Shown piece after piece: positions 1,913 through 46,050 of a DNA stretch of 60,116 bases. Location of the stretch: assembly GCA_021202335.1 (NCBI GenBank), contig JAJQDE010000021.1, forward strand, positions 1 to 60,116. The letters run 5' to 3'. The notes under the pieces were generated by a model. The model made no database searches. It saw only the letters and a program-made list of their open reading frames with translations, and was not told where the DNA came from. The stretch comes from Lachnospiraceae bacterium (GTDB lineage Bacteria > Bacillota > Clostridia > Lachnospirales > Lachnospiraceae). Position 1 is the first letter of the stretch; each line of letters starts with the position of its first letter. A program made the translations under genes and the position numbers.

Positions 1913-1916
1913 AAAA

Positions 1917-27927: not shown

Positions 27928-28611
<684 letters not shown>

Positions 28612-28641: not shown

Positions 28642-28787
28642 CCGATATTCTTTCAAAATTGACACTAATATAATAGCATAAATCGTAATTAATGTCACTA
28701 AAACATCTTTTTTTTGTATTTTTTGTGCACATTTGCCAAAACCGGCGTTTGCATTTTGGGAGTCAGGCATACATGGATTTACAATCT

Positions 28788-28813
28788 CAAAAAGTACACT
28801 TTTTGACACAGCT
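28788..28813 (+). repeat. Palindromic direct repeat of the site after the recombinase (site 2)
   Basis: CAAAAAGT-AC-ACTTTTTG, continuing GACACAGC. Together with 28612-28641 it brackets the 150-nt upstream region of the cytidylyltransferase gene. Confidence 0.55.
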
Positions 28814-28828
28814 GCGCGGGGGAAAAGT

Positions 28829-29545
28829 ATGGCAGCAGCGCTCATATTTGCCGGAGGAACAGGCAAAAGGATGAATTCAAGGACGAAGCCGAAGCAGTTT
28901 TTAGAAATGCACGGCAAGCCGATTATCATATATACATTGGAGCATTTTGAATACCATAACGAGATAGACATGATTATCGTCGTCTGCCTTAAGGAATGGA
29001 TACATGAGCTTAAGGGGATGCTGGAACGCTATGGTATCACTAAGGTAAGGCGGATTACTGAAGGCGGTGAAACGGGACACGATTCCATATATCTCGGGCT
29101 GGAAGCGATGGAGGGGATGGTGGATGATGAGGAAATTGTGCTGATACACGATGGAGTGCGCCCCCTTATCAATGAGGAGCTTATATCAAAAAATATAGCT
29201 GCGGTCAGAAAATACGGCAATGCCATTACGGCGGAGCCTGCAAGGGAAAGCATTGTCCGCAGCGTGGACGGGCAGTCCGTTGCGGATGTCCCCGCAAGGG
29301 GGCAGATGTATTCGGCAAAAGCGCCTCAGAGCTTTTATTACGGCAAAATAAGAAGTCTGTACCGTATGGCGAGGAAGGACGGAATAAAATCCATTGACTC
29401 CGCGCATCTGTGCAGCCTGTACGGGGAACCGATGCACATGGTAAAGAGTACGCCCAACAATCTGAAGATAACGGAGCCGGCGGATTTTTATATGTACAGG
29501 GCTGTCTATGAAGCACTTGAGGGGCAGCAGCTCTACGGGATATAG
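28829..29545 (+). CDS. IspD/TarI-type sugar- or polyol-phosphate cytidylyltransferase
   Basis: A 238-residue protein starting MAAALIFAGGTGKRM with the Gly-rich CTP-binding loop, TKPKQFLEMHGKP, and LIHDGVRPLI. GGGGGA upstream selects the start at 28829. IspD (isoprenoids) and TarI (CDP-ribitol) share this fold. As the first gene of a glycan cluster next to a CDP-glycerol transferase-like gene, a CDP-polyol role is plausible, but no TarJ dehydrogenase is present. Confidence 0.8.
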   Translation: MAAALIFAGGTGKRMNSRTKPKQFLEMHGKPIIIYTLEHFEYHNEIDMIIVVCLKEWIHELKGMLERYGITKVRRITEGGETGHDSIYLGLEAMEGMVDDEEIVLIHDGVRPLINEELISKNIAAVRKYGNAITAEPARESIVRSVDGQSVADVPARGQMYSAKAPQSFYYGKIRSLYRMARKDGIKSIDSAHLCSLYGEPMHMVKSTPNNLKITEPADFYMYRAVYEALEGQQLYGI

Positions 29546-29568
29546 GATAAGGGATGGGGAACGTTGAC

Positions 29569-30042
29569 ATGAAGAAAAAAGAAATGCTTGCAATGGTCGT
29601 GGAAATGGATAAGGCAAATGACGACTGCCGGAACCAAAATAAAGCCGTATCGGTGGAAGAGCTGGCGCAGTGCCAGCAGACTGCCATTACGCTCGGCAGC
29701 GAACTGGAAAAAAGAGGGGAACGCGGCGAACAGCTCATGCATATGCTTGAGGAATACTGTGAGTATATCTGTCAGTTGGGAACGGATAAGGGGGACGCTA
29801 CTGCCCGCAGGAAGCTGACAAAAAAAATCAGGCAGCAGCTCTCGCGGGTAAAAAACGCAATCACTTATGACCTTCCGGATGACAAAAAGGAGATAGTTTT
29901 CCTGCCGTACAAGGCGTCCATGTGGGATTCACTGGAAAGCATATGGCTTGCTGCAAAAGAGGATGACACATGCGAAACCTTTGTCATACCGATTCCGTAC
30001 TGCGATAAAAACCCCGACGGGAGTATAAAGCAGTGGCACTGA
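29569..30042 (+). CDS. CDP-glycerol transferase-like/DUF4422 protein, N-terminal fragment
   Basis: It encodes 157 residues with a helical start and then DKKEIVFLPYKASMWDSLE and FVIPIPYCDKNPDGS. In relatives this is the first half of the CDP-glycerol glycerophosphotransferase-like domain. TGA at 30040-30042 interrupts it, and the frame continues without shift (EAGEYPDYVPVTPWEEYD). The ATG at 29569 has GGGGA 9 nt upstream; an in-frame ATG at 29554 is possible. Confidence 0.7.
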   Translation: MKKKEMLAMVVEMDKANDDCRNQNKAVSVEELAQCQQTAITLGSELEKRGERGEQLMHMLEEYCEYICQLGTDKGDATARRKLTKKIRQQLSRVKNAITYDLPDDKKEIVFLPYKASMWDSLESIWLAAKEDDTCETFVIPIPYCDKNPDGSIKQWH

Positions 30043-32010
30043 GAAGCCGGTGAATACCCCGATTATGTGCCGGTGACGCCGTGGGAGGAATATGACATTG
30101 CGGAAAGGAAGCCGGATATTATATTTTTCCATAACCCCTATGATGAATATAACTATGTGACCGGCGTGCATCCGAAGTATTATTCGTCTGAGTTAAAAAA
30201 GCATACGGATAAGCTGGTGTATGTCCCCTACTTTGTGGCGCTGAATGACGTGAGTGAGCATTTCATTACGGTACCCGGTGTGGTTAATGCTGATTACGTG
30301 ATAGTACAGTCGGAGAAAGTGAAGGAAACATATGCAAGGGTGTTCATTGATTTTATGGGAAAGCAGCAGAAGGAGCTTGAAGAGCGCACGGGACAGGTAA
30401 ACAGGGAGTTTTGGAAACGGCTGAGGAAAACGGCGGATGAAAAATTCCTGCCGCTAGGCTCCCCCAAGACCGATAAGGCGGTAAATACCAAAAGGGAGGA
30501 TGTCTCGCTGCCGGAGGAATGGGAAAGACTCATCGTAAGTGAGGACGGTACGCGCAAAAAAGTAATCCTCTATAATACCACTATAGATGCATTGCTGAAA
30601 AACAGGGAAGCCTACATAAAGAAGCTGCAGTCAGTGCTGGAGGAATTTAAGGAAAACCGGGAGGCAGTCCTGTGGTGGAGACCGCATCCGCTGCTGCAGA
30701 GCACGCTCGACTCTATGATACCCCGGCTCTCCGATGATTACCGCCGTATTGTCTGGCAGTACCGGGAGGCGGGCCGGGGCATATATGACGATACCGCGGA
30801 TTTAAACAGGTCGATTGCCGTGTCGGACGCATATTATGGGGATTGGAGCAGCGTGGTGGCGCTGTACCGTGAAACGGGAAAGCCAGTCATGATACAGAAT
30901 ACTGACGAAGCCGTTGTGCTGGGTGAGGATATGCGGAGGAATGACGCATACATACTCTACGGAGCCGGCGTTGTGGCTTATGAAACATACAATGCCGTTT
31001 TAAGTCTGTATGGCAGGAAGCCCGCGTGTGTGGTTGTGTCGGAAAAGAACGGCACCGGTGGAAATTGGATGCCGGAGGGGATGGACATTCGAACCCCGGA
31101 GGAGGTTGACGCGCAGCTGTGGGATTATCCTGTAGTGATAGCGGCGCCGGAGCCTTATCATGATGAAATCCGCAGCGTGCTCGGGAGATATCCGGCAAAG
31201 AACATATACTGTGTGACCTCACATTTGGAGTATATGCTGACAGGGGAATATTTCAGGAAGAACGGCAGGTTTTTGCTGGCGGAGGATTTGCGGGGCAGTG
31301 AGGAAACGCCAAAGCCGGATGCTGTCAGGTGTGTGCGGGTATATATGGCAAAATCGCATAAGGATGTGGAGCTTAAAAACCTGTATGAAATCCCAAAGTG
31401 GATTAAGCCCATACAGGCGGGATATGCAGTTGCGGATGCCGACCTGGGGATACTCAGGGATGATACGGGCGAAAATATTTCCGTGAAAAATGCGGATTAC
31501 TGTGAGCTGACAGTCACCTATTGGGTCTGGAAGAATGTTAAAAGCCGATATAAGGGAGTCTGCCATTACAGGAGGATGCTCATACTGAGTGAAAACCAAC
31601 TGGAGCGCTGCATCGCGCAGGATGTGGACGCCATCCTGCCGCTGTCTTTTACCTGTTATCCTGATGCGTCCGGACAGTATCGCAGATACATTTCCGGAGC
31701 GGATTGTGAAGGGCTGAAAAAAGCCCTGCGCGATGTGTCGCCCGAATATTTGGAGGAATGGGAGAAGCTCGACAGTCAGCCGTATTTTTATAATTACAAC
31801 ATGCTGATTGCTAAGGAAAATGTGTTTGACAGCTACTGCGGGTGGCTGTTTAGTGTGCTGGAGCGGGCGGAGATATATTGCAGACCGGGCGGAGCGGAGC
31901 GGGGGGACCGCTACGCGGGGTACCTGGGAGAGCTGCTGACGACGCTGTATTTCATGAAAAACAGCGACAGTCTTAAGATTGTACATGCGGAGAGGAACTG
32001 GATGGTATGA
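30043..32010 (+). CDS. CDP-glycerol transferase-like/DUF4422 fusion protein, main fragment
   Basis: The 655-codon continuation of the frame at 29569 (first likely internal start at 30067, GTG-rich area). Regions: rest of the CDP-glycerol transferase-like domain (HNPYDEYNYVTGVHP; WWRPHPLL; SDAYYGDWSSVVALY); a Rossmann-like module (YILYGAGVVAYET, ~30946-31240); and a C-terminal DUF4422 domain (VYMAKSHKDVELKNLYEIP; YKGVCHYRRML). DUF4422 proteins are glycosyltransferases of surface glycans. It overlaps the Stealth gene by 4 nt. A nonsense codon upstream probably separates two of the catalytic parts. Confidence 0.75.
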   Translation, partial: EAGEYPDYVPVTPWEEYDIAERKPDIIFFHNPYDEYNYVTGVHPKYYSSELKKHTDKLVYVPYFVALNDVSEHFITVPGVVNADYVIVQSEKVKETYARVFIDFMGKQQKELEERTGQVNREFWKRLRKTADEKFLPLGSPKTDKAVNTKREDVSLPEEWERLIVSEDGTRKKVILYNTTIDALLKNREAYIKKLQSVLEEFKENREAVLWWRPHPLLQSTLDSMIPRLSDDYRRIVWQYREAGRGIYDDTADLNRSIAVSDAYYGDWSSVVALYRETGKPVMIQNTDEAVVLGEDMRRNDAYILYGAGVVAYETYNAVLSLYGRKPACVVVSEKNGTGGNWMPEGMDIRTPEEVDAQLWDYPVVIAAPEPYHDEIRSVLGRYPAKNIYCVTSHLEYMLTGEYFRKNGRFLLAEDLRGSEETPKPDAVRCVRVYMAKSHKDVELKNLYEIPKWIKPIQAGYAVADADLGILRDDTGENISVKNADYCELTVTYWVWKNVKSRYKGVCHYRRMLILSENQLERCIAQDVDAILPLSFTCYPDASGQYRRYISGADCEGLKKALRDVSPEYLEEWEKLDSQPYFYNYNMLIAKENVFDSYCGWLFSVLERAEIYCRPGGAERGDRYAGYLGELLTTLYFMKNSDSLKIVHAERNWMV

Positions 32011-33020
32011 ATGACGCAATAGACATTGTTATCCCGTGGGTGGATGGCAGTGATGAAAAGTGGAAGGCTCAAAAGGAGGAAGCATTCCATGCCGCAAAAG
32101 CGGATATGGCTTCAGATAGCAGCATACGCTTTGAGAGCTGGGGGAATTTGCGATACTGGTTCCGTGCGGTGGAGAAATTCATGCCGTGGTTTAACCGGAT
32201 TGTGTTTGTCACATGGGGACATCTGCCAAGCTTTCTGAATACGCGAAATCCGAGGCTTAAGATTGTAAAGCATTCCGATTATATACCGGAAAAGTATTTG
32301 CCGACATTTAATTCAAACACGATAGAGATGAACTACCACCGGATAGCGGATTTAGAGGAAAATTTTATCCTGTTTAATGATGATTTTTTCCCGTTACAGC
32401 CTATAGAGGAAACGTATTTTTTTAAAAATAACAGGGTGTGCGATGAAGCGGTCGAGGGTGTTGTCGTTCCCGTGAAGGAGGACGACAGTACGCTCATGAC
32501 ACGGTATGTGCAGATAAACAATCTGAGTATCATTAATAAATACTTTAACAAAAGAGAAGTGCAGAAGAAAAATCACGATAAGTGGTACTGCGAGGATTAC
32601 GGTGAGCTGCTTGAGAGGACCATAAGTATGTCATACTGGGATAATTTTATGGGAATACGCGACCCGCATCTGCCGAGTGCGCTGAAGAAATCAACGCTTG
32701 CACGACTTTGGGATTTGGAATATGAAGCGCTGGACAGAGCCTCGCGCAACCGATTCAGACACCATAATGACATCTCCCAGTGGCTGATAAGATACTGGCA
32801 GCTGTGTGAAGGGGATTTTGAACCGAGAAGGACACAGGGGAAATTTTACGTAGTTGATATAAAAAACTGCAATGATATTGCACAAGTGATAAGAAAGCAA
32901 TCTCAGAAGATGATAGGGATAAATGAGAATTGCACTGAAGAGGAATTTAGGACAATAAGGGAAAAAATCAACCGGGCATTTGAAGAAATACTTCCGGAGA
33001 AGAGTTCATTTGAGTTATAG
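32007..33020 (+). CDS. Stealth-family capsular polysaccharide phosphotransferase
   Basis: The 337-residue protein has Stealth conserved regions CR1 (IDIVIPWVDGSDEKW), CR2 (LRYWFRAVEKFMPWFNRIVF; NSNTIEMNYHRI; FILFNDDFF) and CR3 (RFRHHNDISQWLIRYWQL). These enzymes transfer sugar-1-phosphate units to build phosphodiester-linked capsule or teichoic-acid-like chains. It is coupled to the preceding gene by an ATGA overlap. Confidence 0.92.
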   Translation: MNDAIDIVIPWVDGSDEKWKAQKEEAFHAAKADMASDSSIRFESWGNLRYWFRAVEKFMPWFNRIVFVTWGHLPSFLNTRNPRLKIVKHSDYIPEKYLPTFNSNTIEMNYHRIADLEENFILFNDDFFPLQPIEETYFFKNNRVCDEAVEGVVVPVKEDDSTLMTRYVQINNLSIINKYFNKREVQKKNHDKWYCEDYGELLERTISMSYWDNFMGIRDPHLPSALKKSTLARLWDLEYEALDRASRNRFRHHNDISQWLIRYWQLCEGDFEPRRTQGKFYVVDIKNCNDIAQVIRKQSQKMIGINENCTEEEFRTIREKINRAFEEILPEKSSFEL

Positions 33021-33028
33021 GAGAAGCA

Positions 33029-34450
33029 ATGAAATATGTGATATGGGGCTGCGGAAAACAGGGGAAAAGACTGTTTGACGCATTCGGGAAAAACTGCATA
33101 TGTGCTTTCATTGACAGCAGCGAAAAGCTGCAAGGCTCTTACTATGAAGGCATTCCGATTATTTCGTATGAAACATATCTGCGCGAGTTTCGCAAAGCAG
33201 TGATTATAATATCGCCGGCGCGGAATACTGAAACAATTGTGGAGCGGCTGACGCGGGACGGTATTGATTTTTTGGGAAATGCGTCAATACCGAAGGAAAT
33301 AATAACTGGATATCATGACGGGTCGTTTGCAGATTTGGAAAGGCTTGCGGAGGGCAGGGAGGGTCTTTACCTGTATTGCTTTACCGCATACAATGCACTG
33401 CTGTACGAGTATTTCACAATGCGCGGGAAAAAGGTGAGCATTGTCTTGGACGGCGCGCACGATGAGAAAGTTCCCAAAGCGTTTGAAAGTGTGACAGTGC
33501 CGTATGAAGCAGGAAAATACGATGCGCTGTGTGTGACAGACTTTGAGCTTTGCGACAGTTTAAATGGTGAAAATATTTTGCCGTTTTATTTATTGGAGAA
33601 TTACCCGTTTATCAGCAGACCGTCGGAGGCACTGGAAGTTCCGAAAGGCTTTCTGAATACGCAGAGCAGGGAAAAGAAGATAATCGTTTCACTTACGACA
33701 TACGACAAAAGGCTTGACGCTGTGCCTTACGCAATAGGGACAATAATGAGGCAGACGATGAAGCCTGACAGGATTATTGTTTATATGGCGGAGAGCAACA
33801 GGGATAAGCTCCCGCAGGAGCTGAAAATACAGATATCGCAAGGGGTTGAGGTGCGCTATGTGGAGGATTTGAAGCCGCATACGAAGTATTACTACGCCAT
33901 GCGGGAATATCCTGAGGATATTGTGGTAACTGTTGACGATGATATTTTTTACAGACTGGATTTGATTGAAAGACTATACAAATCCTATCTCAAATTTCCC
34001 GGCTGTGTGTCAGCTGTGCTTGCGGAGAAAATTACCTTTGACGGGGCGGGCAGGCTCAGACCGTACAATGAGTGGGGCAGATACGGCGCGGAAAATTATG
34101 GGGAAGCGGGACAGCCGTCCATGGCTTTAAGTGCAATGGGAGCAGGGGGCGTTTTATATCCTCCGCACTGCATGACCGGTGAAGTGTTTAATAAAGAAAA
34201 TTTTATGAAGCTTTGCCCCGGGGCAGACGATTTGTGGCTTAAGGTTATGCAGACGCTGAACGGAACCGCCGTAGTGCTTGCCGCCGATGAAAGGCATCCG
34301 CCGATAGAGGTCGGAGCCGTGCAGAAATACGGTCTGCGTAACGCGAATATTGAGAATAACGGGAATGATGCGCAGATGAAAGCAATACTTGAGGTGTATA
34401 ACGAATGTGCAGAGGGCGTGACTGTTTTGGAGAAGATAATGAGAGGGTGA
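33029..34450 (+). CDS. Rossmann module fused to a GT-A glycosyltransferase
   Basis: The 473-residue protein has an N-terminal Rossmann-like module (MKYVIWGCGKQGKRLFDAFG; residues 1-~95), a linker region, and a glycosyltransferase part from ~215 (IIVSLTTYDKRLDAVPYAI) with a DDD metal motif (VTVDDDIFYRLD). The GT part resembles transferases that hold KIIVSLTT starts in capsule clusters. The exact sugar is unknown. AGGAG lies 7 nt upstream. Confidence 0.78.
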   Translation: MKYVIWGCGKQGKRLFDAFGKNCICAFIDSSEKLQGSYYEGIPIISYETYLREFRKAVIIISPARNTETIVERLTRDGIDFLGNASIPKEIITGYHDGSFADLERLAEGREGLYLYCFTAYNALLYEYFTMRGKKVSIVLDGAHDEKVPKAFESVTVPYEAGKYDALCVTDFELCDSLNGENILPFYLLENYPFISRPSEALEVPKGFLNTQSREKKIIVSLTTYDKRLDAVPYAIGTIMRQTMKPDRIIVYMAESNRDKLPQELKIQISQGVEVRYVEDLKPHTKYYYAMREYPEDIVVTVDDDIFYRLDLIERLYKSYLKFPGCVSAVLAEKITFDGAGRLRPYNEWGRYGAENYGEAGQPSMALSAMGAGGVLYPPHCMTGEVFNKENFMKLCPGADDLWLKVMQTLNGTAVVLAADERHPPIEVGAVQKYGLRNANIENNGNDAQMKAILEVYNECAEGVTVLEKIMRG

Positions 34451-34457
34451 CGGTCAA

Positions 34458-35966
34458 ATGTGGTATTTGGAGTCGGGGCTGCTCGGTGACAGTGGGTTTG
34501 GAAGGGTACAGAAGGAGATTCTTAAGGCAGCAGGAATATTCGACTGTTACATAGGGGAGCGCACAGAGATAACAAAATATACTTCGGGGCCGGTTATAAG
34601 AAGGCTGTGCCGTTTCCGCGAATATGATAACGAGGGTGGCAGAAAGGTGTTTCATTTTCCCTACAATTTCATACCGGAACAATGCTGTGCGGGCGTTGCC
34701 ATTGTGACAATCCATGACATTATCCCGTTGCGGTATCGGACATATGACAATGATTCGGAGTACGAGGAATATAAAAGAAACATTATTTGGACGGTCAGGC
34801 GCGCGGATTATATTCTGACGGTGTCGGAAGCTTCTAAAAATGATATACAGGATTATTTTGGCATTGAGGAAAAACAGATAACCGTGATACACGATTCTAT
34901 TAATGAATATTTCCATAGATTGGATGAGGGGCGGATAAGCACTTTTAAGGACTCGTTCACGGAAATATCAGGTAAAAGGATTATACTGACGATGGCAAAC
35001 AGGTATTTGTATAAAAATCTCCATAAGACTTTGGAAGCGTTCGCAATGCTGTGGGACAGGAATGTTGTGCTGGTTGTGGCAGGGAACCTGAAGGAGAGGG
35101 AAACGCATTACTTAAAAAAGACCAAAGAGCTGGGGATTGAAAAAAGCGTTATCTTTATCGGAAATATTCCGGATGAAGAGCTTCGTCTTTGGTATAATGC
35201 TGCGGATATATTTGTGTTTCCATCACTTATGGAGGGTTTCGGGCTGCCGCCCGTGGAGGCAATGGCGTGTGGGACGCCCGTAATCACGTCAAATGTTTCA
35301 TCGTTGCCCGAGGTTGTCGGTGACGCGGCTATCTTGGTAAATCCAAATGATGAAAAAGAAATAGCGATGGCTATGAGAAAGCTGCTTGAGGATGGGCAGA
35401 CACGTGAAAAGCTGATAGCAGCCGGATATGAAAGGGTGAAGCTGTTTTCCGGCAAAAAGTATCGGGAAAGAATGAGAAGATTTTATGCGGAGATAGCGGA
35501 GGACATCCGAAACGACGGCATACCCGTTAGGGATTTTTCAGGATATACGGTTAAGAAGGATGAAAAAGAGAAAAGCATTTATAAGTTTAGTATGCTGTTT
35601 GACATTGCCGCATATTGGCTGGAATTAAAAAATAAAAACATCAGTGTTTCCGAATATTTCCTTTTACGGAATTACCGTAAAATAGCCATATATGGAATGG
35701 GAAAGCTTTCAAAGCTTTTGGCTGAAGAACTGTCAGGCAGCGGGATAGAAATACTATATGGCATAGATTGCAGTATACGTGGGACGGTCTGCGGGATTGA
35801 GGTGTATGATTCTGATGAAATCGGCGTGCTGGAAAGCCCCGATGTTTACGTTGTTACCACGCCGTATATTTTTGACGAGATAGAGGCAATGCTTTTAGAA
35901 AAATCGGGGCAGGAAAAGACCGCCATAATCGGCATTGACGAGGTAGTTTTTGATTATTCGATTTAA
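34458..35966 (+). CDS. GT4 glycosyltransferase with C-terminal Rossmann module
   Basis: The 502-residue protein has a GT-B fold GT4 core: [27 protein letters not shown] and the retaining EX7E motif [11 protein letters not shown]. From ~residue 400 there is a second, separate module ([35 protein letters not shown]) of the Rossmann type recurring in this cluster. It probably adds one sugar to the repeat unit on the cytoplasmic face. Confidence 0.85.
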
Positions 35967-35988
35967 ATAAGAATGAGGAGATGCATTA

Positions 35989-37095
35989 TTGAGTGGGAAA
36001 AAAATAAGAGCAGGGTATGTTTTGGTTAATATGGAGAAAAACCCGACAGGAATTAACAGATATTCACAGGAGATTTTGAAAAACTTATTAAACCATGAGG
36101 AAATCTCAATGGAAATATTGGGAGAAAACTTTCTTGTTCCGGGGAAAATCAGAGAAAGATACGGTTTATATACCCGTTTGCAAGGTGACATAAGGAGGCA
36201 GAAGGAGATTTGGGCTGCGGCAGTCATGGACAGGCTGGATATTGTCCATTCATTTTACCACCCTGTACCTGATAAAAAGGGAGTGGTAAAAATTTTGACA
36301 ATACATGACCTTTCGCCGCTTGCAAATGAGGAATGGTTTGCGGATAAGAAATCCTACCGGTATTTTAACGAAAACATTCGCCATTCTGCGGAAACGGCTG
36401 ATGCCGTTATTGCGGTTTCCGAGGCGACGAAACGGGAAATCCTGCATTTTTTTCATATTCCTGAAAATAAGATACGGGTTATTTATGAAGGGTTGAACTG
36501 CCATCAGGCTGGGGAAGAGCATCCGCTTGATGTTCATGATAAATGGGGAATAGAAGGGGAATACATTTTGTCGGTAGGGACATTGCAGCCGAGAAAAAAC
36601 CTTGTTTCGCTTATCAAAGCTTTTTGCATTTACAAAGGCCGGCACAGAGCTTCCGATGTTAAGCTGGTCCTGACAGGACAAAGGGGTTGGAGCTATAATG
36701 CAATATTTGATGAGGCCGAGGCGGGCAAATATGTTAATGACATTATTTTTACAGGCTATGTGTCGGATGAGGATTTAAGCCATTTATATAAAAACGCTTT
36801 GGCGTTTGCGTATGTATCTTTTTATGAAGGGTTTGGACTTCCGATTTTAGAGGCAATGGCGCATGGAAAAGCAGTGCTGTCCTCAAATACGACATCAATG
36901 CCGGAGGTTGGAGGCGATGCAGTGGTATACTGCAATCCGTATGATTTGGAATCCATTTGTGATGGGCTGACATGCCTGATAGAGGACATCGGTTTAAGGA
37001 ACGGACTGGAGCAAAAGGCGGAGTTGCAGGCTGCAAAATTCTCTTATAAGAAGGCTGCCGAAGAAATCTGTGATTTGTATAAGGAGTTTGTCTGA
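35989..37095 (+). CDS. GT4 family glycosyltransferase
   Basis: The 368-residue protein has a TTG start 9 nt after GAGGAG. It has NPTGINRYSQEILKNL, LTIHDLSPLANEEWF, ADAVIAVSEATKREI, LSVGTLQPRKNL and the EX7E motif EGFGLPILEAM. It is typical of mannosyl- or rhamnosyl-type GT4 enzymes, but the specificity cannot be read. Its stop overlaps the next start by 1 nt. Confidence 0.88.
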   Translation: MSGKKIRAGYVLVNMEKNPTGINRYSQEILKNLLNHEEISMEILGENFLVPGKIRERYGLYTRLQGDIRRQKEIWAAAVMDRLDIVHSFYHPVPDKKGVVKILTIHDLSPLANEEWFADKKSYRYFNENIRHSAETADAVIAVSEATKREILHFFHIPENKIRVIYEGLNCHQAGEEHPLDVHDKWGIEGEYILSVGTLQPRKNLVSLIKAFCIYKGRHRASDVKLVLTGQRGWSYNAIFDEAEAGKYVNDIIFTGYVSDEDLSHLYKNALAFAYVSFYEGFGLPILEAMAHGKAVLSSNTTSMPEVGGDAVVYCNPYDLESICDGLTCLIEDIGLRNGLEQKAELQAAKFSYKKAAEEICDLYKEFV

Positions 37096-37640
37096 TGGTT
37101 AGAAAAGAGGAATATGACCGTATTATTGATGAATTAAAGGAATGTGAGAAAGTCAGTTTCAAGCTGGAAAATGGAAGCGGCTTATCGATGCTGGAGAATA
37201 AGAATGTTTTTATGATTCGTTCCGTGCGTGAGGAAACCTTTAGGCAGATATTGTCAAAGCTGAATAAGCAGGCACCAAACTGTAAGTTGTGTATATTGGG
37301 GCGTGCGGGAGATGGTGAAATATTAAAGCAGGAATTTCCACATGATTATCGATTGTTTGAAGTGCATGATGATAAACAATATGACGTGGCGGGCATAGGT
37401 GGAATTTTAGATGAAATCAGGGCGGTAAATTTTAATGCATGCCTGTTTATGACGAAAGAGTCGATTAGCTTTAGCCAAGTAAATCTGATGGAAATTTTAT
37501 ATAAGCTTCCATGCAGTATGAAAGGAGTCGTTACCAAGCATTGCAAAGTAAATTTATTACAGACTGAATGGGAACGATACATCAGAATAAAAGCTGATTA
37601 TGACATGTTATGTGATGAAATTTGGAAAATGTATGATTAG
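37095..37640 (+). CDS. Unrecognised 181-residue protein of the glycan cluster
   Basis: No family recognised. No signal peptide or membrane segment. The middle has a Rossmann-like strand-turn (KLCILGRAGDGEIL), and ACLFMTKESISFSQVNLMEIL suggests a second alpha/beta half. It is tightly coupled (1-nt overlap with the GT4 gene, GT8 28 nt downstream), so it most likely acts in the same pathway. It may be a degenerate GT-B half or an accessory protein. Confidence 0.6.
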   Translation: MVRKEEYDRIIDELKECEKVSFKLENGSGLSMLENKNVFMIRSVREETFRQILSKLNKQAPNCKLCILGRAGDGEILKQEFPHDYRLFEVHDDKQYDVAGIGGILDEIRAVNFNACLFMTKESISFSQVNLMEILYKLPCSMKGVVTKHCKVNLLQTEWERYIRIKADYDMLCDEIWKMYD

Positions 37641-37668
37641 TGACAATTACGTTAAATCAGGGGATAGT

Positions 37669-39018
37669 ATGATACATATTGTTTTTATAACGGATGAAAA
37701 CTATATAATGCCGACCAAAGCGGCGATACGCTCAATTATCAGAAATGCGTCAGGAAATACACAGGGGACAATCTATGTGGTAGGCGATATTGAAACGGAT
37801 TTGCAAAATCATTTTGCGGGATTGGCAACGGACAGATTTTATATAAATGTTATACCGGTCATTAAAGAAAACAGGTTAGCATATAAAAAAGAGCATTTAT
37901 ATGTTTCGTCCGCCGCATTGTACAAATTTATGCTGCCTGAACTTTTGGGAAAGCTGGATAAAGTGCTTTACCTTGATGGGGATGTAATCGTGGAGGGCGA
38001 TTTACGGGAATTGTTCGACACGGATATAGAGGGCTTTTATCTTGCAGCTGTCGAGGATATGTGTGCAGTCAAACAGGAGAACGTGTTGGAGAAAACAGGC
38101 AATGAACGTTATTTTAATTCCGGTGTTATGCTGCTGAATCTTGCAATGCTTCGGGGCGAGAATATGCCGAAGGAACTGATTGATGAGCGGATGCGGGATG
38201 AAGATATGCGTTTTATGGATCAAAATGTATTTAACAGGGTACTGGGGGGCAAAGTGAAATATCTTTCAGCAAAATTTAATTTTATGAAAGTAAATCTAAG
38301 AAATTTTACGGAAAGAGAGATTGGATATTTTTACGGAATTTCATCTGCTGAATACCGGACGGTATGCAATAATCCGGTTATTTTACATTTCACGAATAAG
38401 GAAAAACCATGGAATACATATGAAGCTTTGGATTTTGAAAAGTGGTGCATGTACCTTGAGGGAGAGGAAATACCACTGGTGTTAAAAAACTGTTACGGGA
38501 GATTCAGAGATGATATAAGAGAAAAAGTTGCAGAACTGGAAACGATGTACTCTCTAAGTATTCAAAGGCTGGAGCGTTCAATGATGTTCAGAATACGGCA
38601 GGATAATGAAAGCCAGGCTTATTTATTGAAAGAAAAGCAGAAAGAGATAGATAGTCTGAAAATGTTGGTTAAAAAATATCTGCCGGAGGAGAAATCTGAC
38701 TTGGAGGCGGAAGATGGCAGACCGGAGAAAAGGTATGTAATATACGGTGCAGGGGATTATGCAATGCAGGTATTTAAAAATTGCCATGCCGCGAAAAAGG
38801 ATAAAGAAATTTTGGCGTTCGCAGTAACAGAGCCGGAAAAAAATCCTCTTTATCTTTACGGAATACCGGTGGTTTCCATTGGGGAACTAAAGAAGCAAAA
38901 GGATAAAGTGACGGTGATTGTGGCGGTAAGTCAGGCATATTTGCCGGAGATTTGCGATAAACTTTACGCGTTTGGATTTACGGATATTGTGGAGAACGGT
39001 TTGCAGTATAAGTGGTGA
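37669..39018 (+). CDS. GT8 glycosyltransferase with C-terminal Rossmann module
   Basis: The 449-residue protein has a GT8 domain: MIHIVFITDENYIMPTKAAI, LYLDGDVIVEGDL (DxD), FNSGVMLLNL and HFTNKEKPW. A coiled-coil-like link (~280-340) follows, then the recurring module (RYVIYGAGDYAMQVFKNC; VTVIVAVSQAYLPEI). GGGGATAGT before the ATG sets the start at 37669. It probably transfers glucose or galactose; acceptor unknown. Confidence 0.86.
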   Translation: MIHIVFITDENYIMPTKAAIRSIIRNASGNTQGTIYVVGDIETDLQNHFAGLATDRFYINVIPVIKENRLAYKKEHLYVSSAALYKFMLPELLGKLDKVLYLDGDVIVEGDLRELFDTDIEGFYLAAVEDMCAVKQENVLEKTGNERYFNSGVMLLNLAMLRGENMPKELIDERMRDEDMRFMDQNVFNRVLGGKVKYLSAKFNFMKVNLRNFTEREIGYFYGISSAEYRTVCNNPVILHFTNKEKPWNTYEALDFEKWCMYLEGEEIPLVLKNCYGRFRDDIREKVAELETMYSLSIQRLERSMMFRIRQDNESQAYLLKEKQKEIDSLKMLVKKYLPEEKSDLEAEDGRPEKRYVIYGAGDYAMQVFKNCHAAKKDKEILAFAVTEPEKNPLYLYGIPVVSIGELKKQKDKVTVIVAVSQAYLPEICDKLYAFGFTDIVENGLQYKW

Positions 39019-39085
39019 AGCTTAATTTGCACTAAAAAAGTATACGAAAATAAGTGAAACTGGGAGATTGGAGGATGCTGCTGAA

Positions 39086-40072
39086 ATGAAAATAGTGGTA
39101 TATGGATTGGGAAATAAAGGAAAAGCTTTTTTAGGGCATATGATTGATGTATTAAAACAACAAAAAATTGAGTTACTTGCAATTTCAGACAGTAATGTTG
39201 ATTGTGATATGAGCACTGACAGAAGGTTTGTCATGCCGCAGCAGTTGGTAAACTGTGTGTTAGATTATGTGGTTGTTACCACAACGGAAATGTATTTTGA
39301 AGAAATCAAGGAGCAGCTGGTAAATTTAGGTATTCAGTGTGGGAAGATTGTTTCGATAGATGAGTTTGTGAATATTGCTGCGCCGTTTGAGTGTAATATG
39401 TGCGGTTCGAGGAACCTTGCTTGGAGAGAAACGGGGTTGGATTTATCATTTATGAATAAAAGGATAGTTGGTGGAGGAAGAAGGAAAGGTGTTTGTCCTA
39501 TTTGTGGAAGTATTGATAGAACAAGATATGTGTATCACTTTTTGAAAGAATATACAGATATTTTTAAGAATACTTGCTCTGTGCTGCATTTTGCGCCTGA
39601 GGAATGCTTGACTAAGAAGTTGAAAGAAAACAAGGCGTGCAGCTGCATATCGGCTGATATAGAGCTGGGAAGGGCTGATGCTGTTGCGGATATAACGAAC
39701 CTTCAATTTGCAAATGATACATTTGATTATATCATATGTAATCATGTATTGGAGCATATAGTAGATTTGCCAAAGGCTCTTTCAGAGTTAAAGCGCGTGT
39801 TGAAGAAAAATGGAAAAGCGATAGTGACAGTGCCTATATGTTGGGAAATTAAAACGTATGAGGATAGCAGCATAATAACACCTGAGAATAGATTTGAAAA
39901 TTATGGGCAGGAAGATCATGTTAGGTTGTTCGGGTGTGATACTGCAGAAATAATAGAAAACGCCGGATGGAAAGTAAATGAGTATAAATGCAGAGATATT
40001 GCGGATGCAGAAACCATAGAGAAAAGAGGTTTTATTGCAGATGATTGTTTGTTTGAGGTGACCAAGGAATAA
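39086..40072 (+). CDS. Rossmann module fused to a zinc-ribbon SAM methyltransferase
   Basis: The 328-residue protein has an N-terminal Rossmann-like module (MKIVVYGLGNKGKAFLGHM), two CxxC pairs (FECNMCGSRN; GVCPICGSIDR) forming a likely zinc site, and a class I methyltransferase core (VLHFAPEECL; YIICNHVLEHIVDLPKAL; VTVPICWE). It would methylate a sugar or lipid-linked glycan. GGAGG 11 nt upstream supports 39086. Confidence 0.8.
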   Translation: MKIVVYGLGNKGKAFLGHMIDVLKQQKIELLAISDSNVDCDMSTDRRFVMPQQLVNCVLDYVVVTTTEMYFEEIKEQLVNLGIQCGKIVSIDEFVNIAAPFECNMCGSRNLAWRETGLDLSFMNKRIVGGGRRKGVCPICGSIDRTRYVYHFLKEYTDIFKNTCSVLHFAPEECLTKKLKENKACSCISADIELGRADAVADITNLQFANDTFDYIICNHVLEHIVDLPKALSELKRVLKKNGKAIVTVPICWEIKTYEDSSIITPENRFENYGQEDHVRLFGCDTAEIIENAGWKVNEYKCRDIADAETIEKRGFIADDCLFEVTKE

Positions 40073-40110
40073 CGTTGCTGTATTAAAAGGATTAAAGGGA
40101 GGCAATTATT

Positions 40111-41382
40111 ATGGAAGAAATTATGGTTTCAATAGTATGCGTTACATACAATCATTCGCAATACATAAGGGCGGCGTTGGATGGATTTTTAATGCAGAAA
40201 ACAAATTTCAAATATGAAATATTGGTACATGATGATGCTTCAACAGACGGCACAACAGAAATTTTGAAAGAGTATAAGGAGAGGTATCCGGATAAAATCA
40301 ATTTGATATTGCAAACGGAAAACCAATATTCTAAAGGAGTAAAAAACTCTGTGAAATATATGTATCCTGTAGTACGTGGAAAATATGTTGCTTTGTGTGA
40401 GGGAGATGATGCATGGATATACGCCGGCAAGCTGCAGGAACAGTTTGATTTTTTGGAAATGCATTCGGATGTGGCGATGTATATACATAACGCTTTAAGG
40501 ATTGATGCAAGGACCGGAGAGAAAGTTTTACAGATAAATGGTATGGATTCGGGCTATATAAGCGATGAAGAAATAATTTTGTGCACAAAAGGAAGTGTAC
40601 CGACAGCTTCTTTTTTCTATCGGAGTCAATACATAAAAAATTTGCCGGAATGGTTTGACAAATCGCCGGTCGGCGACAATCCATTACGTTATCTGTGTGC
40701 ACTGAACGGGAAAATATATTACCAAAATGAGGCTTGGTCTGTCCGTAATTATATGCATGAAGGCTCGTGGAACAGCACAATGGCTGATGATGTCGAACGG
40801 TATAATTTAATGGCTAACAGAAATATTGCGTTTTTATCACTATTTAATGAGTGTTCGGGAAAGAGGTTTGAAGCTTATATTGATGTGTTGATTGAAATTT
40901 ATTGTAGAGAGATATTTAACAGGCAAATGGGAAAAAAATGCAGTATAGGTGAAATAAAATGTGTCGTGGAAAAGTGCAAGGAAGATTCAATGCATAAATT
41001 TGATAAAATTTATCAGAGTATTTATAGCAAAAAGATGCTGCATGAAATTGATTGTTTACGGCAAAGTGTTGATTATTGGGAAAATATCGAAGAAGAAATC
41101 AAGGATGCAGGATTACGGGGAGAGAAGGTATTCATATATGGAATAGGTGCAGAAGCAGAAGAAAGATATTTAAAGATTGGCAGTTTGTCGGCGTACATAG
41201 ACGGTTTTGTGGTATCAAAGAAATCGGATGTCGCGGAATTTAAAAATCGCAGAGTATATGGATTAGACGATTTGGCAGACAGCAAGGAAAACACATTTTT
41301 GTGGCTCTGCATGAATATGAAAAATACATTGGAAGTGATTGAAACCCTAGATAGTAAGGGATTTAAAAATTATATCATATAA
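40111..41382 (+). CDS. GT2 glycosyltransferase with C-terminal Rossmann module
   Basis: The 423-residue protein has a GT2 start (VSIVCVTYNHSQYIRAAL), EILVHDDASTDGTTEIL and CEGDDAWI (metal motif). The final ~95 residues (KVFIYGIGAEAEERYLKI) are the recurring Rossmann-like module, here somewhat shortened. GGGAGG upstream. Confidence 0.86.
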   Translation: MEEIMVSIVCVTYNHSQYIRAALDGFLMQKTNFKYEILVHDDASTDGTTEILKEYKERYPDKINLILQTENQYSKGVKNSVKYMYPVVRGKYVALCEGDDAWIYAGKLQEQFDFLEMHSDVAMYIHNALRIDARTGEKVLQINGMDSGYISDEEIILCTKGSVPTASFFYRSQYIKNLPEWFDKSPVGDNPLRYLCALNGKIYYQNEAWSVRNYMHEGSWNSTMADDVERYNLMANRNIAFLSLFNECSGKRFEAYIDVLIEIYCREIFNRQMGKKCSIGEIKCVVEKCKEDSMHKFDKIYQSIYSKKMLHEIDCLRQSVDYWENIEEEIKDAGLRGEKVFIYGIGAEAEERYLKIGSLSAYIDGFVVSKKSDVAEFKNRRVYGLDDLADSKENTFLWLCMNMKNTLEVIETLDSKGFKNYII

Positions 41383-41421
41383 AGTGCGTTATATAAAGTG
41401 TGTTAAGAAAGGGCAGGTGGA

Positions 41422-42603
41422 ATGGTGAAAGCGGATATATATTATCTTTCGGCGATGAATGGTGTAATAATCGATGATAAGCTGATAATGGTAAATATGC
41501 TTTATGGGATTGTGCTTGAATATGATTTAAAAGATTTTAATTATACTATATTAGGTTACATAAAGCTGCCGGAGGAGTTTGATATGGTGCGGGTCACATC
41601 AATCATTCCTTATGATGGATTTTTATATATGACCTTGGAAAATGCACATGAGATATTACGGTTTTCACGGGACACAAAAGAAATATGCGTGCCGGGAGGA
41701 ACAAACGGCGAGCTGCGCATGACGTCTCTGAACAGGTCGAAAGCATATTTACACGGTGATGTTATTTGGAGTCTGCCATATGACTGCAGTGAGTATATTT
41801 TGAGATATGATATCCGGTCGGACAGGCTTGAAAATTGGAAAAGCATAGAGGAGCTTTTGACGGGTGAAGACGGCTGGGAGAAGGATTTTATTGTGGATTC
41901 GTGCTTAAGGGAGGGCAGATATATTTATCTGGTGATAAGAAATACGGATATGGTGATTGTGATAGACATGGATTTGGAAAGCATTGCGCTGCATCACATT
42001 GGCAAAGAGTACCACATTAAATGCATTGAAAGATTGGGTGAGGATTTAAGCCTGACTGTAGACGACGGCAATTTTTTCCTGAGGCTGAAGGAAGATTGCA
42101 GTGTCGAAAAAATCTCCTATGAGTATATGGGGATAAGCCCGGATGCAGAGCTGCGGACAGTATTTATGGATAGCGGCAGGTATGTGGCAGTTATGTCACA
42201 TGACCCTGTTGTATATATGCTTGACGAAAATACTAAAGCTTTAGGCAGATATGATTTTTCGGAGGGTTTTCGTCATATTATAAATGAAAAAAGAGCTTGC
42301 ATCCTTAATTTAATTCAATATGAAAATTACTTGTATTACATCCCGTTTTCAATGAACTGCATTGTGAGGATAAATCTTGATTTATTGAAAGGGGAAAAGC
42401 TTTCGGGCGAATTGCGGAGGCAGGATGTGTTTCGGTATTATCGGATGGAGCGCTTAAAATCCGAAAATGCATTTTGGGCTGAGGGTGATGACTTAAATTT
42501 AGGTGAGTATTTAGAATATGTGGCATGTTCTATAGCAGAGAGTGATAAAGAAAAAGCGCATTCTCAGGCGGGAGAGCTTATATATCATACAATTTGCAAT
42601 TAG
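41422..42603 (+). CDS. Unrecognised 393-residue protein, beta-propeller-like
   Basis: No family recognised with certainty. Short hydrophobic strands alternate with turns (GVIIDDKLIMVNMLYGIVLEY; YLHGDVIWSLPYDCSEYILRY; YIYLVIRNTDMVIVIDMD), a rhythm like a beta-propeller. There is no signal peptide, so it is cytoplasmic. Comparable proteins appear in clusters with DUF4422 and GT2 genes, but the role is unknown. Confidence 0.6.
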   Translation: MVKADIYYLSAMNGVIIDDKLIMVNMLYGIVLEYDLKDFNYTILGYIKLPEEFDMVRVTSIIPYDGFLYMTLENAHEILRFSRDTKEICVPGGTNGELRMTSLNRSKAYLHGDVIWSLPYDCSEYILRYDIRSDRLENWKSIEELLTGEDGWEKDFIVDSCLREGRYIYLVIRNTDMVIVIDMDLESIALHHIGKEYHIKCIERLGEDLSLTVDDGNFFLRLKEDCSVEKISYEYMGISPDAELRTVFMDSGRYVAVMSHDPVVYMLDENTKALGRYDFSEGFRHIINEKRACILNLIQYENYLYYIPFSMNCIVRINLDLLKGEKLSGELRRQDVFRYYRMERLKSENAFWAEGDDLNLGEYLEYVACSIAESDKEKAHSQAGELIYHTICN

Positions 42604-42608
42604 GGAGG

Positions 42609-42700
42609 GAGAGAACCAACTTTGTTGGTTCTGCAAGTTTGTGACTGCGCGTTGCTTGCACAAACGTTGCTTTATGCGCAAAGAGCAGCGCAGAAATGAG
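42609..42700 (+). repeat. Dispersed two-hairpin repeat before the radical SAM gene
   Basis: Hairpin 1: AGAACCAA/TTGGTTCT. Hairpin 2: GCAAGTTTGTG with CACAAACGTTGC. The tail TTTATGCGCAAAGAGCAGCG is shared with 338-390 and 11979-12000. It sits in the only sizeable gap inside the glycan cluster and runs into the radical SAM Shine-Dalgarno. Confidence 0.6.
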
Positions 42701-42707
42701 GGAAATA

Positions 42708-44117
42708 ATGAAATTATGCAGGAGAGGCGTTCATTTAATTCAGATAATAAATGCGCAGGGTGATGTACGTGTGTGTGGCTGGAATTGTAACAATATTATA
42801 GGGAATATTTTGAAGGATGATTTTCGGACAATCATGCACAGCGAAAGGGCAGAAAGTGTGCGCAAGCCATTGATTGAGCAGACTTATACGGATTGTCCTG
42901 CTGATAATTGCCCGTATTTAGCAAATAAGACAATGGGGGAACATCTTATTGAGTTGGACGAAATCCCTGATTATCCGGAGGAGCTTTACTTGGGCTACGA
43001 AGGGGTATGTAATTATAATTGTACATGCTGTACCAGCAAGGACAATATGGATGATGCAAGAACTCATGATTATGAAGAAAATTACAGATTAATAGCAGAA
43101 AAACTGAAACCGATTTTGCCAAGAGTAAAGAAAATTTCAGCAAACGGCAGAGGTGAACTGTTTGCAAGCAGGCATATCATGGAGCTTTTGGCGCAATGGG
43201 AACCGGAATATCCCGCAGAGGAGTGTTCGGTGATTTTGGAAACCAATGGTTCGCTGTTTAATGAAAAGAATTGGGAGAAAATATCGAATTTAGGGAAATA
43301 TCACTTAAAAGTTGCGATAACAATCATGAGCTTTGACGAGATGATTTATCGGCATTTGTCAGGCACAAAGCTGCCAATCAGCAATATTGAAAGTAATTTG
43401 CGTTTTGTAAAATCTCTGCGTGAAAAGGGGATTATCAATGAATTGGAGCTTGCGACTGTTCTGCAGGAGGAAAATTTCAGGGAGATGCCGGAATTTACCC
43501 GCAGGTGTATTGAGGAATTTGGGGCAGATTGTGTCAGAATAAGACCTATTAGACCGGGAGGCTGTTATGACAAAAATATACAGTGGTTTATGGATGTAAG
43601 AAATCCGCGTCACCCATATTATCATCAATATAAGGAGATTATGAGCAATCCTATATTTAAAAATCCAAAGGTGTTGCTATGGTCGGGTGAGCTTGATAGC
43701 TGCGCGGGCAGGCTTCCGGCGGTAGAGGAGTTGGAGAAAAAACAGCAGGAATTGCTGAAAAATCAAAAAATACAGAGGGTAGTGGATTGTATTTTGACAA
43801 AATGCAGTTTTGCAAATTGCCTTGAAGCTCAAAATTTGAAGTCGGATAAATATGTAATATACGGGATAGGGACAATAGGTAAGCTGCTGATAAGGCTATA
43901 CAAGGATAAAATCCAAATAGAGGGCGCTTTAGACATTAAAGGTGGTGCTTCATGGAGGTTTGACTGCTTTGATGTTATGAAGCCCTGCGAAAAGCGGGAA
44001 TCGTTTTTAGATGCGAATATAATTGTGACGACTTACGGCAAATATGAACAGATTGAAAAAATGCTGCGTGAGTATGGCTATCGGGGTACGATAATGAACA
44101 TTTTCGATATTTTATGA
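42708..44117 (+). CDS. Radical SAM protein with N-terminal SPASM-like domain and C-terminal Rossmann module
   Basis: The 469-residue protein has a SPASM-like region at the N-terminus (INAQGDVRVCGWNCNNIIGNI; C23, C27, C63, C68). The radical SAM cluster motif CNYNCTCC (C101, C105, C108) follows, then a barrel (KKISANGRGE; ILETNGSLF). The final ~95 residues are a Rossmann-like module (KYVIYGIGTIGKLLIRLY). SPASM normally follows the radical SAM core, so the order is unusual. Substrate unknown, likely a sugar or glycan intermediate. GAGGGA supports 42708. Confidence 0.8.
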   Translation: MKLCRRGVHLIQIINAQGDVRVCGWNCNNIIGNILKDDFRTIMHSERAESVRKPLIEQTYTDCPADNCPYLANKTMGEHLIELDEIPDYPEELYLGYEGVCNYNCTCCTSKDNMDDARTHDYEENYRLIAEKLKPILPRVKKISANGRGELFASRHIMELLAQWEPEYPAEECSVILETNGSLFNEKNWEKISNLGKYHLKVAITIMSFDEMIYRHLSGTKLPISNIESNLRFVKSLREKGIINELELATVLQEENFREMPEFTRRCIEEFGADCVRIRPIRPGGCYDKNIQWFMDVRNPRHPYYHQYKEIMSNPIFKNPKVLLWSGELDSCAGRLPAVEELEKKQQELLKNQKIQRVVDCILTKCSFANCLEAQNLKSDKYVIYGIGTIGKLLIRLYKDKIQIEGALDIKGGASWRFDCFDVMKPCEKRESFLDANIIVTTYGKYEQIEKMLREYGYRGTIMNIFDIL

Positions 44118-44127
44118 GGTTCAAGCT

Positions 44128-45243
44128 ATGGAAGAAACAAAAAACATATACGTAACACAATCCTCGATGCCGCCATACGAGGAATACATAGAAGCCATCA
44201 AACCGTTATGGGACAGTCATTGGCTGACGAACATGGGAAAATACCATAAAGAACTGGAAGCACAGCTGAAAGAGTATTTGGATGTGCTGGAGCTGTCGCT
44301 CATGGTGAACGGGCATATGGCGTTGGAGCTTGCAATACAGGCTTTTGGGTTCCCGGAAGGGGCGGAGGTTATCACGACGCCGTTCACATTTATTTCAACG
44401 ACGCACGCCATTGTAAGAAACCGCTTAAAACCCGTGTTCTGCGATGTAAAGAAAAGTGACGGCACGATTGACGAAAGCAAAATCGAAGATTTGATTACGG
44501 AGCGCACTGTCGCAATCGTTCCGGTGCATGTATACGGGAATGTCTGCAATATAGAGGAGATACAGAGGATTGCGGATAAATATAATTTAAAGGTAATTTA
44601 TGATGCCGCGCATGCATTCGGCGTGAGATACAAGGGAAAGGGAATCGGGAGCTTTGGCGACGCTTCGGTTTTCAGTTTCCATGCAACGAAGGTGTTCAAT
44701 ACGATAGAGGGCGGCGCGGTAACATTTTCAGAACGCAGATTGTATGACAAGCTCTATAATCTTAAGAATTTCGGCATACGCAGCGAGGAGCTGGTGGCGG
44801 AGGTCGGAGCAAACGCCAAAATGAATGAATTTGCGGCGATTATGGGCTTGTGCAATTTAAGACATATTGGTACCGCTTTGGATGAAAGAAAAAAAAGATA
44901 TGATTTTTATATGGAAAATCTGAGAAACGTCAAAGGAATCAGAATGTTTGAGAAGAAGGATGCTGCGACAAATAATTATGCGTATTTCCCGATTCTGATT
45001 GAGGACGGCTATGGGAAATCGCGGGACGAGCTGTATATGTTATTAAAAGAAAGCAATATATATTCGAGGAAGTATTTTTATCCGATTACTGCTGACCACG
45101 CGTGTTTTAAAAATAAATACAGAAAAGATGATTTGGGAAATGCAAGGGAGATTTCCCAAAAAGTTTTAGTGCTGCCGCTCTATGAAATGTTAGGAATGGA
45201 TGATATTGCCGGAATTACAAAAATCCTAAGAAAAAATGTGTGA
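44128..45243 (+). CDS. DegT/DnrJ/EryC1/StrS family sugar aminotransferase
   Basis: The 371-residue PLP enzyme has PFTFISTTHAI, DAAHAFGVRYKGKGIG, and the cofactor Lys in FHATKVFNTIEGGAV. These enzymes aminate NDP-4-keto (or 3-keto) sugars. No 4,6-dehydratase lies in the window, so the keto-sugar must be made elsewhere. With WbqC and GNAT nearby, an N-acylated amino-dideoxy sugar is a reasonable inference. Confidence 0.9.
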   Translation: MEETKNIYVTQSSMPPYEEYIEAIKPLWDSHWLTNMGKYHKELEAQLKEYLDVLELSLMVNGHMALELAIQAFGFPEGAEVITTPFTFISTTHAIVRNRLKPVFCDVKKSDGTIDESKIEDLITERTVAIVPVHVYGNVCNIEEIQRIADKYNLKVIYDAAHAFGVRYKGKGIGSFGDASVFSFHATKVFNTIEGGAVTFSERRLYDKLYNLKNFGIRSEELVAEVGANAKMNEFAAIMGLCNLRHIGTALDERKKRYDFYMENLRNVKGIRMFEKKDAATNNYAYFPILIEDGYGKSRDELYMLLKESNIYSRKYFYPITADHACFKNKYRKDDLGNAREISQKVLVLPLYEMLGMDDIAGITKILRKNV

Positions 45244-45257
45244 AAGGTGGGGTGGCT

Positions 45258-45965: not shown

Positions 45966-46050
45966 CTTTTACTTGCTTCCGATAAAAACGTTATTAATGG
46001 AGTATTAAGCGCTATAAGCCTGCAGAACAATTGTAGAATGGAGAATATAA

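What the first reader, a model, noticed from the sequence alone, without database searches (positions are those of the whole stretch)
29569..44117. One Rossmann-like module fused to seven different catalytic domains in a single glycan cluster
Segments with a strand-glycine-turn start (YVIYGAG, YVIWGCG, IAIYGMG, VVYGLGNKG, FIYGIG) followed by a beta strand of type VIVAVS/VVVTTT occur in the CDP-glycerol/DUF4422 protein (~30946-31240), the GT-A protein (N-terminus, 33029), GT4 (C-terminus, ~35660), GT8 (C-terminus, ~38725), methyltransferase (N-terminus, 39086), GT2 (C-terminus, ~41120) and radical SAM protein (C-terminus, ~43845). They resemble the N-terminal nucleotide/sugar-binding domain of PglD-type or FlaA1-type proteins. 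Placement at either end of unrelated enzymes suggests a shared ligand sensor, a tether to one carrier, or a docking domain that assembles the enzymes into one machine.
Basis: partly seen in the sequence, partly recalled or inferred. Interest (0 to 1): 0.75.

Follow-up and report, generated by a model that had tools for sequence, protein, structure and literature searches.

The report
Shared Rossmann module tagging glycan enzymes
Seven different enzymes in one bacterial surface-sugar gene cluster carry the same small nucleotide-binding-type domain, and related bacteria repeat the pattern and also carry the domain alone behind a likely membrane anchor, which suggests a shared sensor or docking part for sugar-building enzymes.

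The parts
30067..32010 (+). CDP-glycerol transferase-like + DUF4422 protein; module internal
   Evidence: Pfam PF04464 34.9 bits, PF14393 156.9 bits
30940..31224 (+). module 1 (VVS subtype), between the two catalytic domains
   Evidence: profiles, (E 7.7e-10); subtype
33029..34450 (+). GT-A type transferase, N-terminal module
   Evidence: PF00535 below cut-off; paralogue without module at G000:C65:74971
33029..33292 (+). module 2 (Asp subtype), the one modelled
   Evidence: 8.3e-18; AlphaFold2 model
34458..35966 (+). GT4 transferase, C-terminal module
   Evidence: PF00534 146 bits
35532..35675 (+). segment before module 3 ([15 protein letters not shown]; helical by eye, not predicted) that also precedes the module in the stand-alone proteins
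   Evidence: alignment A6
35676..35942 (+). module 3 (Asp subtype)
   Evidence: 6.1e-16
37600..39018 (+). GT8 transferase, C-terminal module
   Evidence: PF01501 148.7 bits
38725..39003 (+). module 4 (VVS subtype)
   Evidence: 1e-16; PglD_N 19.8 bits, below the 23.4 cut-off
39068..40072 (+). class I methyltransferase, N-terminal module (ORF from TTG 39068; ATG at 39086)
   Evidence: PF08241 50.6 bits
39083..39364 (+). module 5 (Asp subtype)
   Evidence: 1.5e-11; C2185-like_N 20.6 bits, below the 27 cut-off
40111..41382 (+). GT2 transferase, C-terminal module
   Evidence: PF00535 61.6 bits
41122..41379 (+). module 6 (VVS subtype)
   Evidence: 3e-13
42696..44117 (+). radical SAM/SPASM protein, C-terminal module
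   Evidence: PF04055 32.6, PF13186 24.3 bits; CxxxCxxC kept
43845..44108 (+). module 7 (Asp subtype)
   Evidence: 3.4e-13
28733..47801 (+). surface-glycan gene cluster around the modules: IspD-like CTP transferase, Stealth, GT4s, DegT aminotransferase, WbqC, pyruvyl transferase, GNAT

Best explanation
Each of the seven enzymes carries an extra domain of about 90 residues from the small-Rossmann superfamily that also supplies the accessory domain of large phosphoglycosyl transferases (WbaP) and FlaA1/CapD dehydratases, the N-domain of PglD-type enzymes and the NAD(H) domain of Rex. It most likely has no chemistry of its own. It keeps, in most copies, the nucleotide-binding edge of the fold and probably senses a nucleotide or nucleotide-sugar (a UMP/UDP-like pool signal is my first guess), and it may self-associate, as the WbaP domain does. 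Fusing one such module to many transferases and modifying enzymes would let one pool signal set the activity or association of a whole glycan pathway. Shown: homology, the fold of one module, fusion to many enzymes, absence from some catalytic homologues, the partial fingerprint. Inferred: ligand, regulation, self-association.
Confidence: 0.45

Rival explanations
1. Docking system: the modules bind each other, and a membrane-anchored stand-alone module acts as a hub that gathers the enzymes at the membrane where the lipid-linked glycan is built.
For: Stand-alone proteins of about 160 aa (hydrophobic N-terminus, conserved segment, module) in 13 of 200 family genomes. Of 22 gathered, 14 reach a Kyte-Doolittle maximum of 1.6 in the first 70 residues, against 3 of 182 module-bearing enzymes. 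13 of 14 regions fetched around stand-alone copies hold further module genes, while 6 of 6 control regions elsewhere in six of the same genomes hold none. Nearest module enzyme within 1500 bases for 12 of 15 such genes. Two glycines four apart in the hydrophobic segment (GxxxG) are each kept in 20 of 22, and the module region averages 40% pairwise identity, against about 19% among enzyme-borne modules. The same segment+module unit ends GT4, WbsX, GT2 and epimerase proteins. WbaP dimer contacts, and modelled EpsZ contacts, lie in this domain (PMC10942596, PMC12802240; passages).
Against: The window's own cluster has no stand-alone copy; the genome's is at C48:61178, and its hydrophobic maximum is only 1.33. 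11 of 24 genomes with the segment+module unit show no full-length stand-alone ORF, and stand-alone copies in L170 and L171 have no hydrophobic anchor. No dedicated TM predictor was run. No same-cluster similarity between modules on different enzymes or between stand-alone and fused copies. The stand-alone set was collected by similarity, which inflates its identity. No multimer prediction or pull-down was possible.
Confidence: 0.3
2. The module is part of the active site in cis: it holds the nucleotide part of the enzyme's own substrate, as I recall for the PglD N-domain and its UDP-sugar.
For: PglD-type acetyltransferases are among the nearest folds and a PglD is itself found by the module profile (L167).
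Against: GT2, GT4, GT8, methyltransferase and radical SAM folds have their own cofactor sites (general knowledge), homologues without the module exist, and the module sits at either end of the enzymes.
Confidence: 0.13
3. Inert or decaying domain: a promiscuous Rossmann unit that spread by fusion and serves only as a stabilising appendix.
For: Fast divergence and erosion of GxGxxG in many copies; in the stand-alone family the second glycine is Ser in 6 of 22.
Against: Recurrence on many enzyme families; the radical SAM family keeps a detectable C-terminal module in 22 of 29 homologues, one of them weak and partial; Tyr-Gly, the third glycine and the Asp after strand 2 are kept in 22 of 22 stand-alone proteins.
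Confidence: 0.12

Closest known systems
Accessory domain (DUF, PF13727 CoA_binding_3) of large phosphoglycosyl transferases such as WbaP
   Different: There one domain on one initiating enzyme, with a hairpin swap; here about 90 aa on seven enzymes of one cluster and on many enzyme families elsewhere. Ligand unknown; no PF13727 match in the window proteins
N-terminal domain of FlaA1/CapD/PglF-type dehydratases (3NKL)
   Different: The seven window proteins have no Polysacc_synt_2 dehydratase domain; this genome's own CapD-like protein is elsewhere (C65)
PglD_N (PF17836) of NeuD/PglD/VioB acetyltransferases
   Different: No hexapeptide acetyltransferase attached; below the Pfam cut-off
C2185-like_N (PF22674); structure 2G6T from Clostridium acetobutylicum (that it is CAC2185 is recalled)
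   Different: Window modules stay below the cut-off (best 20.6 bits); 2G6T is titled an uncharacterized protein
Rex NAD(H)-binding domain (PF02629 CoA_binding)
   Different: No DNA-binding domain was found in the window proteins
C-terminal domain of sugar C-methyltransferases (PF08484; structure 4RV9)
   Same: Profile match 3e-4; subthreshold Pfam matches in one L004 and one L035 protein; 3 of 99 module proteins match
   Different: In the window's methyltransferase the module is N-terminal and PF08484 is not matched

Membership tests
Small Rossmann superfamily (CoA_binding / CoA_binding_3 / PglD_N / Rex type) | compact beta-alpha-beta Rossmann fold | tested here: met
Small Rossmann superfamily (CoA_binding / CoA_binding_3 / PglD_N / Rex type) | sequence kinship detectable by profile | tested here: met
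   A3 profile: 2VT2 4.9e-10, 3NKL 7.8e-10, WbaP 2e-4
PF17836 PglD_N | score above Pfam gathering cut-off | tested here: not met
   best window module 19.8 bits against 23.4
PF17836 PglD_N | fusion to hexapeptide acetyltransferase | tested here: not met
   no Hexapep match in the seven window proteins
PF22674 C2185-like_N | score above Pfam gathering cut-off | tested here: not met
   best window module 20.6 against 27 bits; one related module elsewhere, L128, passes at 33.3
PF13727 CoA_binding_3 / WbaP-type accessory domain | Pfam match | tested here: not met
   no PF13727 match in the window proteins, though the genome's CapD-like protein matches at 55.8 bits
PF13727 CoA_binding_3 / WbaP-type accessory domain | uridine nucleotide binding and dimerisation | not testable with these tools
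   needs protein
Rex (PF02629 + Put_DNA-bind_N) | N-terminal DNA-binding domain | tested here: not met
   absent from the seven proteins; present in this genome's Rex, C39
PF08484 Methyltransf_14 | Pfam match in window proteins | tested here: not met
   no match in the window proteins

The most novel reading that the evidence does not exclude
A glycan-assembly tagging system: one nucleotide-responsive Rossmann module is appended to many enzymes of a surface-glycan pathway, and a membrane-anchored, self-associating stand-alone copy of the module recruits or releases these enzymes according to a nucleotide pool, so that clusters can swap enzymes freely while keeping one common control and assembly part.
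Probability: 0.25. Interest if true: 0.85.

Novelty: new variant of a known kind. Interest (0 to 1): 0.62.

Why it matters
How separate glycosyltransferases of a surface-glycan pathway are coordinated is poorly known (my judgement). The WbaP work suggested that this fold lets glycan enzymes sense UMP, and its authors wondered whether such domains act more widely (PMC10942596, passages read). Here the fold is attached to about 20 proteins in one genome and to many enzyme families in Lachnospiraceae and two Selenomonas clusters, with a stand-alone copy of which three examples match no Pfam or NCBIfam family above its cut-off. That makes the idea testable on short soluble domains.

Tried and rejected
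Unique to this cluster: rejected. Chance or a generic Rossmann signal: rejected. A second Rossmann domain in the 33029 protein (residues 96-215), suggested by eye because related MptE-like proteins seem to have two: not supported (E 1.4). A cluster-specific code: not supported for modules on different enzymes; modules on the same enzyme family within one cluster are somewhat more alike (63 pairs, mean 0.247, median 0.192, against a mean of 0.195 across clusters), which fits local gene duplication. 'Module at either end' as a rule: broken by the 30067 protein and by a GT2-module-module-GT-D protein (L117). One named family for the module: not possible, because it straddles several Pfam families under their cut-offs. 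A GT8 query for named genomes found nothing; the radical SAM alignment worked, so the 29 named loci are biased to clusters with that enzyme. Only two of the lone hits were checked for identity, both in this genome: CapD-like and Rex; others of those lengths are assumed. Literature searches gave the WbaP/EpsZ precedents and no description of these arrays; most papers of subscription journals are not held.

A few repeats remain (one G042 gene counted twice because it was cut by a locus end; a 98.6% identical pair in G013). Three short ORFs (L094, L096, L097) look like Rex by sequence; they are also in the 187. In one search seven of 29 radical SAM homologues lack a module by score: three (L134, L135, L136) have a module-like tail below threshold by eye, three (L125, L129, L130) end before it, one (L137) is cut short.
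Full report
What was checked. The window cluster runs from an IspD-like CTP transferase (28733) through CDP-glycerol transferase/DUF4422, Stealth, several glycosyltransferases, a methyltransferase, a radical SAM protein, a DegT aminotransferase, WbqC, a pyruvyl transferase and a GNAT protein to about 47801, all on the + strand. A profile made from 187 modules of other genomes, with none from this genome, ranks exactly those seven first among 182 window ORFs (domain E 8.3e-18 to 7.7e-10); the next is IspD-like at 4.1e-4 and the best of 20 shuffles of each ORF is 0.17. The 187 had been found with profiles first seeded from this genome, so the test is strong but not fully independent. The seven are about 17-25% identical to the first of them.

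How widespread. The profile of the seven finds eight further places in this genome at E 8.6e-9 to 2.2e-3. A 19-sequence profile, made of those and weaker finds, has 22 hits at E of 1e-3 or better: 7 in the window, 9 on contig C48, 4 on C26, one CapD-like protein and one Rex; 19 of the 22 are in the profile itself. The C48 and C26 partners include DUF4422, GT2, RgpF, GT92, a TupA-like ATP-grasp, a GDSL match below its cut-off, and MptE-like proteins (a second one on C26 by similarity). Of 60 genomes of the family (own included), 50 have a hit at that cut-off, but many are lone hits in ORFs of Rex or CapD length; I count six with three or more on one contig (G000, G013, G022, G031, G042, G056). 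Of 119 genomes of the phylum (own included), 13 have a hit at 1e-9 or better, and G000, G127, G185 and G193 have three or more on one contig. A scan with the radical SAM protein gave 29 named loci, 21 titled Lachnospiraceae and two Selenomonas ruminantium; 27 of the 29 carry at least one module gene, 128 module genes in all (L122/L124 are near repeats and L109/L132 repeat genomes already seen). In the array of G042, 14 module genes lie in about 21 kb.

Partners and position. Of 208 modules, 82 are N-terminal, 101 C-terminal, 5 internal and 20 in ORFs under 230 aa. Pfam on 99 module proteins of the window and the named loci counts 34 GT2, 25 radical SAM (inflated by the query), 10 FkbM, 4 DUF4422, 4 GT4, 2 WbsX, 2 GT-D and 2 RgpF, among others. 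The catalytic parts also occur without the module: a 42% identical GT-A paralogue in this genome, 32 of 35 listed GT8 homologue ORFs (some loci are short), and three of 29 radical SAM homologues. The closest relatives found for the window's radical SAM, GT2 and methyltransferase proteins do carry it. The first ~145 residues of the window's GT-A protein, module included, match the N-termini of two G022 proteins at 35% whose catalytic parts are MptE-like (38-41% to the C26 protein), so one module type sits on different catalytic domains.

What is conserved. Over 176 modules the strongest non-core positions are an aromatic residue before the first glycine, that glycine (168), the second glycine (138), the third (94 Gly, 39 Ala) and an acidic residue after strand 2 (131 D/E; 38 V/I/T; 7 other). 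By a strict pattern GxG is in 133 and G.G..G in 82 of 176. The V type is the VVS subtype seen in three window modules. No conserved catalytic residue stands out. Modules diverge faster than their enzymes (548 of 568 pairs, a biased choice of pairs), and modules on different enzymes of one cluster are not more alike than those of different clusters; modules on the same enzyme family within a cluster are somewhat more alike. This argues against cluster-specific recognition and fits a common ligand or a generic contact.

The stand-alone copy. Among short ORFs a family recurs: a hydrophobic N-terminus, a segment of the type LNQWL-KQEGKSL-YF, then the module. A profile of it (which includes the window's GT4 tail and a C48 protein of this genome, so those two match by construction) finds full-length stand-alone ORFs in 13 of 200 family genomes, including this one (C48) and a congener; 11 further genomes have the unit only in other forms. 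Fourteen regions around stand-alone copies were fetched: 13 hold further module genes and one (L169) only the stand-alone copy, while six control stretches hold none. Two of the 14 (L170, L171) hold stand-alone copies without a hydrophobic anchor. Of 22 gathered anchored-type proteins, 14 reach a Kyte-Doolittle maximum of 1.6 in the first 70 residues, against 3 of 182 module enzymes; this genome's copy reaches only 1.33. No dedicated membrane predictor was available. The 22 keep Tyr-Gly, the third glycine and the Asp after strand 2 in all, a GxxxG pair in the hydrophobic segment in 20, while the second glycine of GxG is Ser in 6. Of the three examples scanned, none reaches a Pfam or NCBIfam cut-off. 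The same segment+module unit ends the window's GT4 and, elsewhere, five WbsX, one GT4, one GT2 and one epimerase protein. This window's cluster has no stand-alone copy, and stand-alone and fused copies of one locus are no closer to each other than to those of other loci (28.2% against 29.1%).

Mechanism. The best precedent is WbaP: its domain of this fold, cut out, is stabilised by UMP, UDP and UTP, the whole enzyme is inhibited by UMP (possibly at the active site too), and the domain makes most of the dimer contact (PMC10942596, passages read). EpsZ, another large phosphoglycosyl transferase, is activated by a partner protein, and models put dimer contacts in the same domain (PMC12802240, passages read). 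I therefore favour a non-catalytic nucleotide-sensing and association module (0.45), with docking to an anchored hub next (0.30). Ligand, regulation and assembly are inferred; nothing here shows them.

Verdict. The fold is known and one role of it is known in WbaP; its serial use on many kinds of glycan enzyme, with a stand-alone copy, I did not find described in the searches named under Tried and rejected.

Noticed in passing
own genome C48:61178-61651 (L003:13179-13652, - strand); also L110, L116, L118, L136, L137, L158-L169: Unnamed family of ~160-aa stand-alone Rossmann-module proteins with a hydrophobic N-terminus, mostly beside module-bearing glycan enzymes
   Followed up: partly
27946-28611: Resolvase-type recombinase (PF00239) just upstream of the glycan cluster; possible switching or mobility of the cluster
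   Followed up: no
37095-37640: 181-aa ORF inside the cluster without any Pfam match
   Followed up: no
41422-42603: 393-aa cluster protein with only a weak DUF5050 match below its cut-off
   Followed up: no
1863-9047: 2394-aa protein with pectinesterase and GDSL esterase domains
   Followed up: no
L117:12538-14856: GT2 - module - module - GT-D protein: two tandem modules between two transferases
   Followed up: partly
L004:3125-5796: Two adjacent MptE-like proteins with N-terminal modules; the second has a weak PseD flagellin-modification match far below its cut-off
   Followed up: partly
L052:7689-9614 and L053:5965-6606 (own genome C65, C39): The genome's CapD-like dehydratase and its Rex carry the known relatives of the module
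   Followed up: yes
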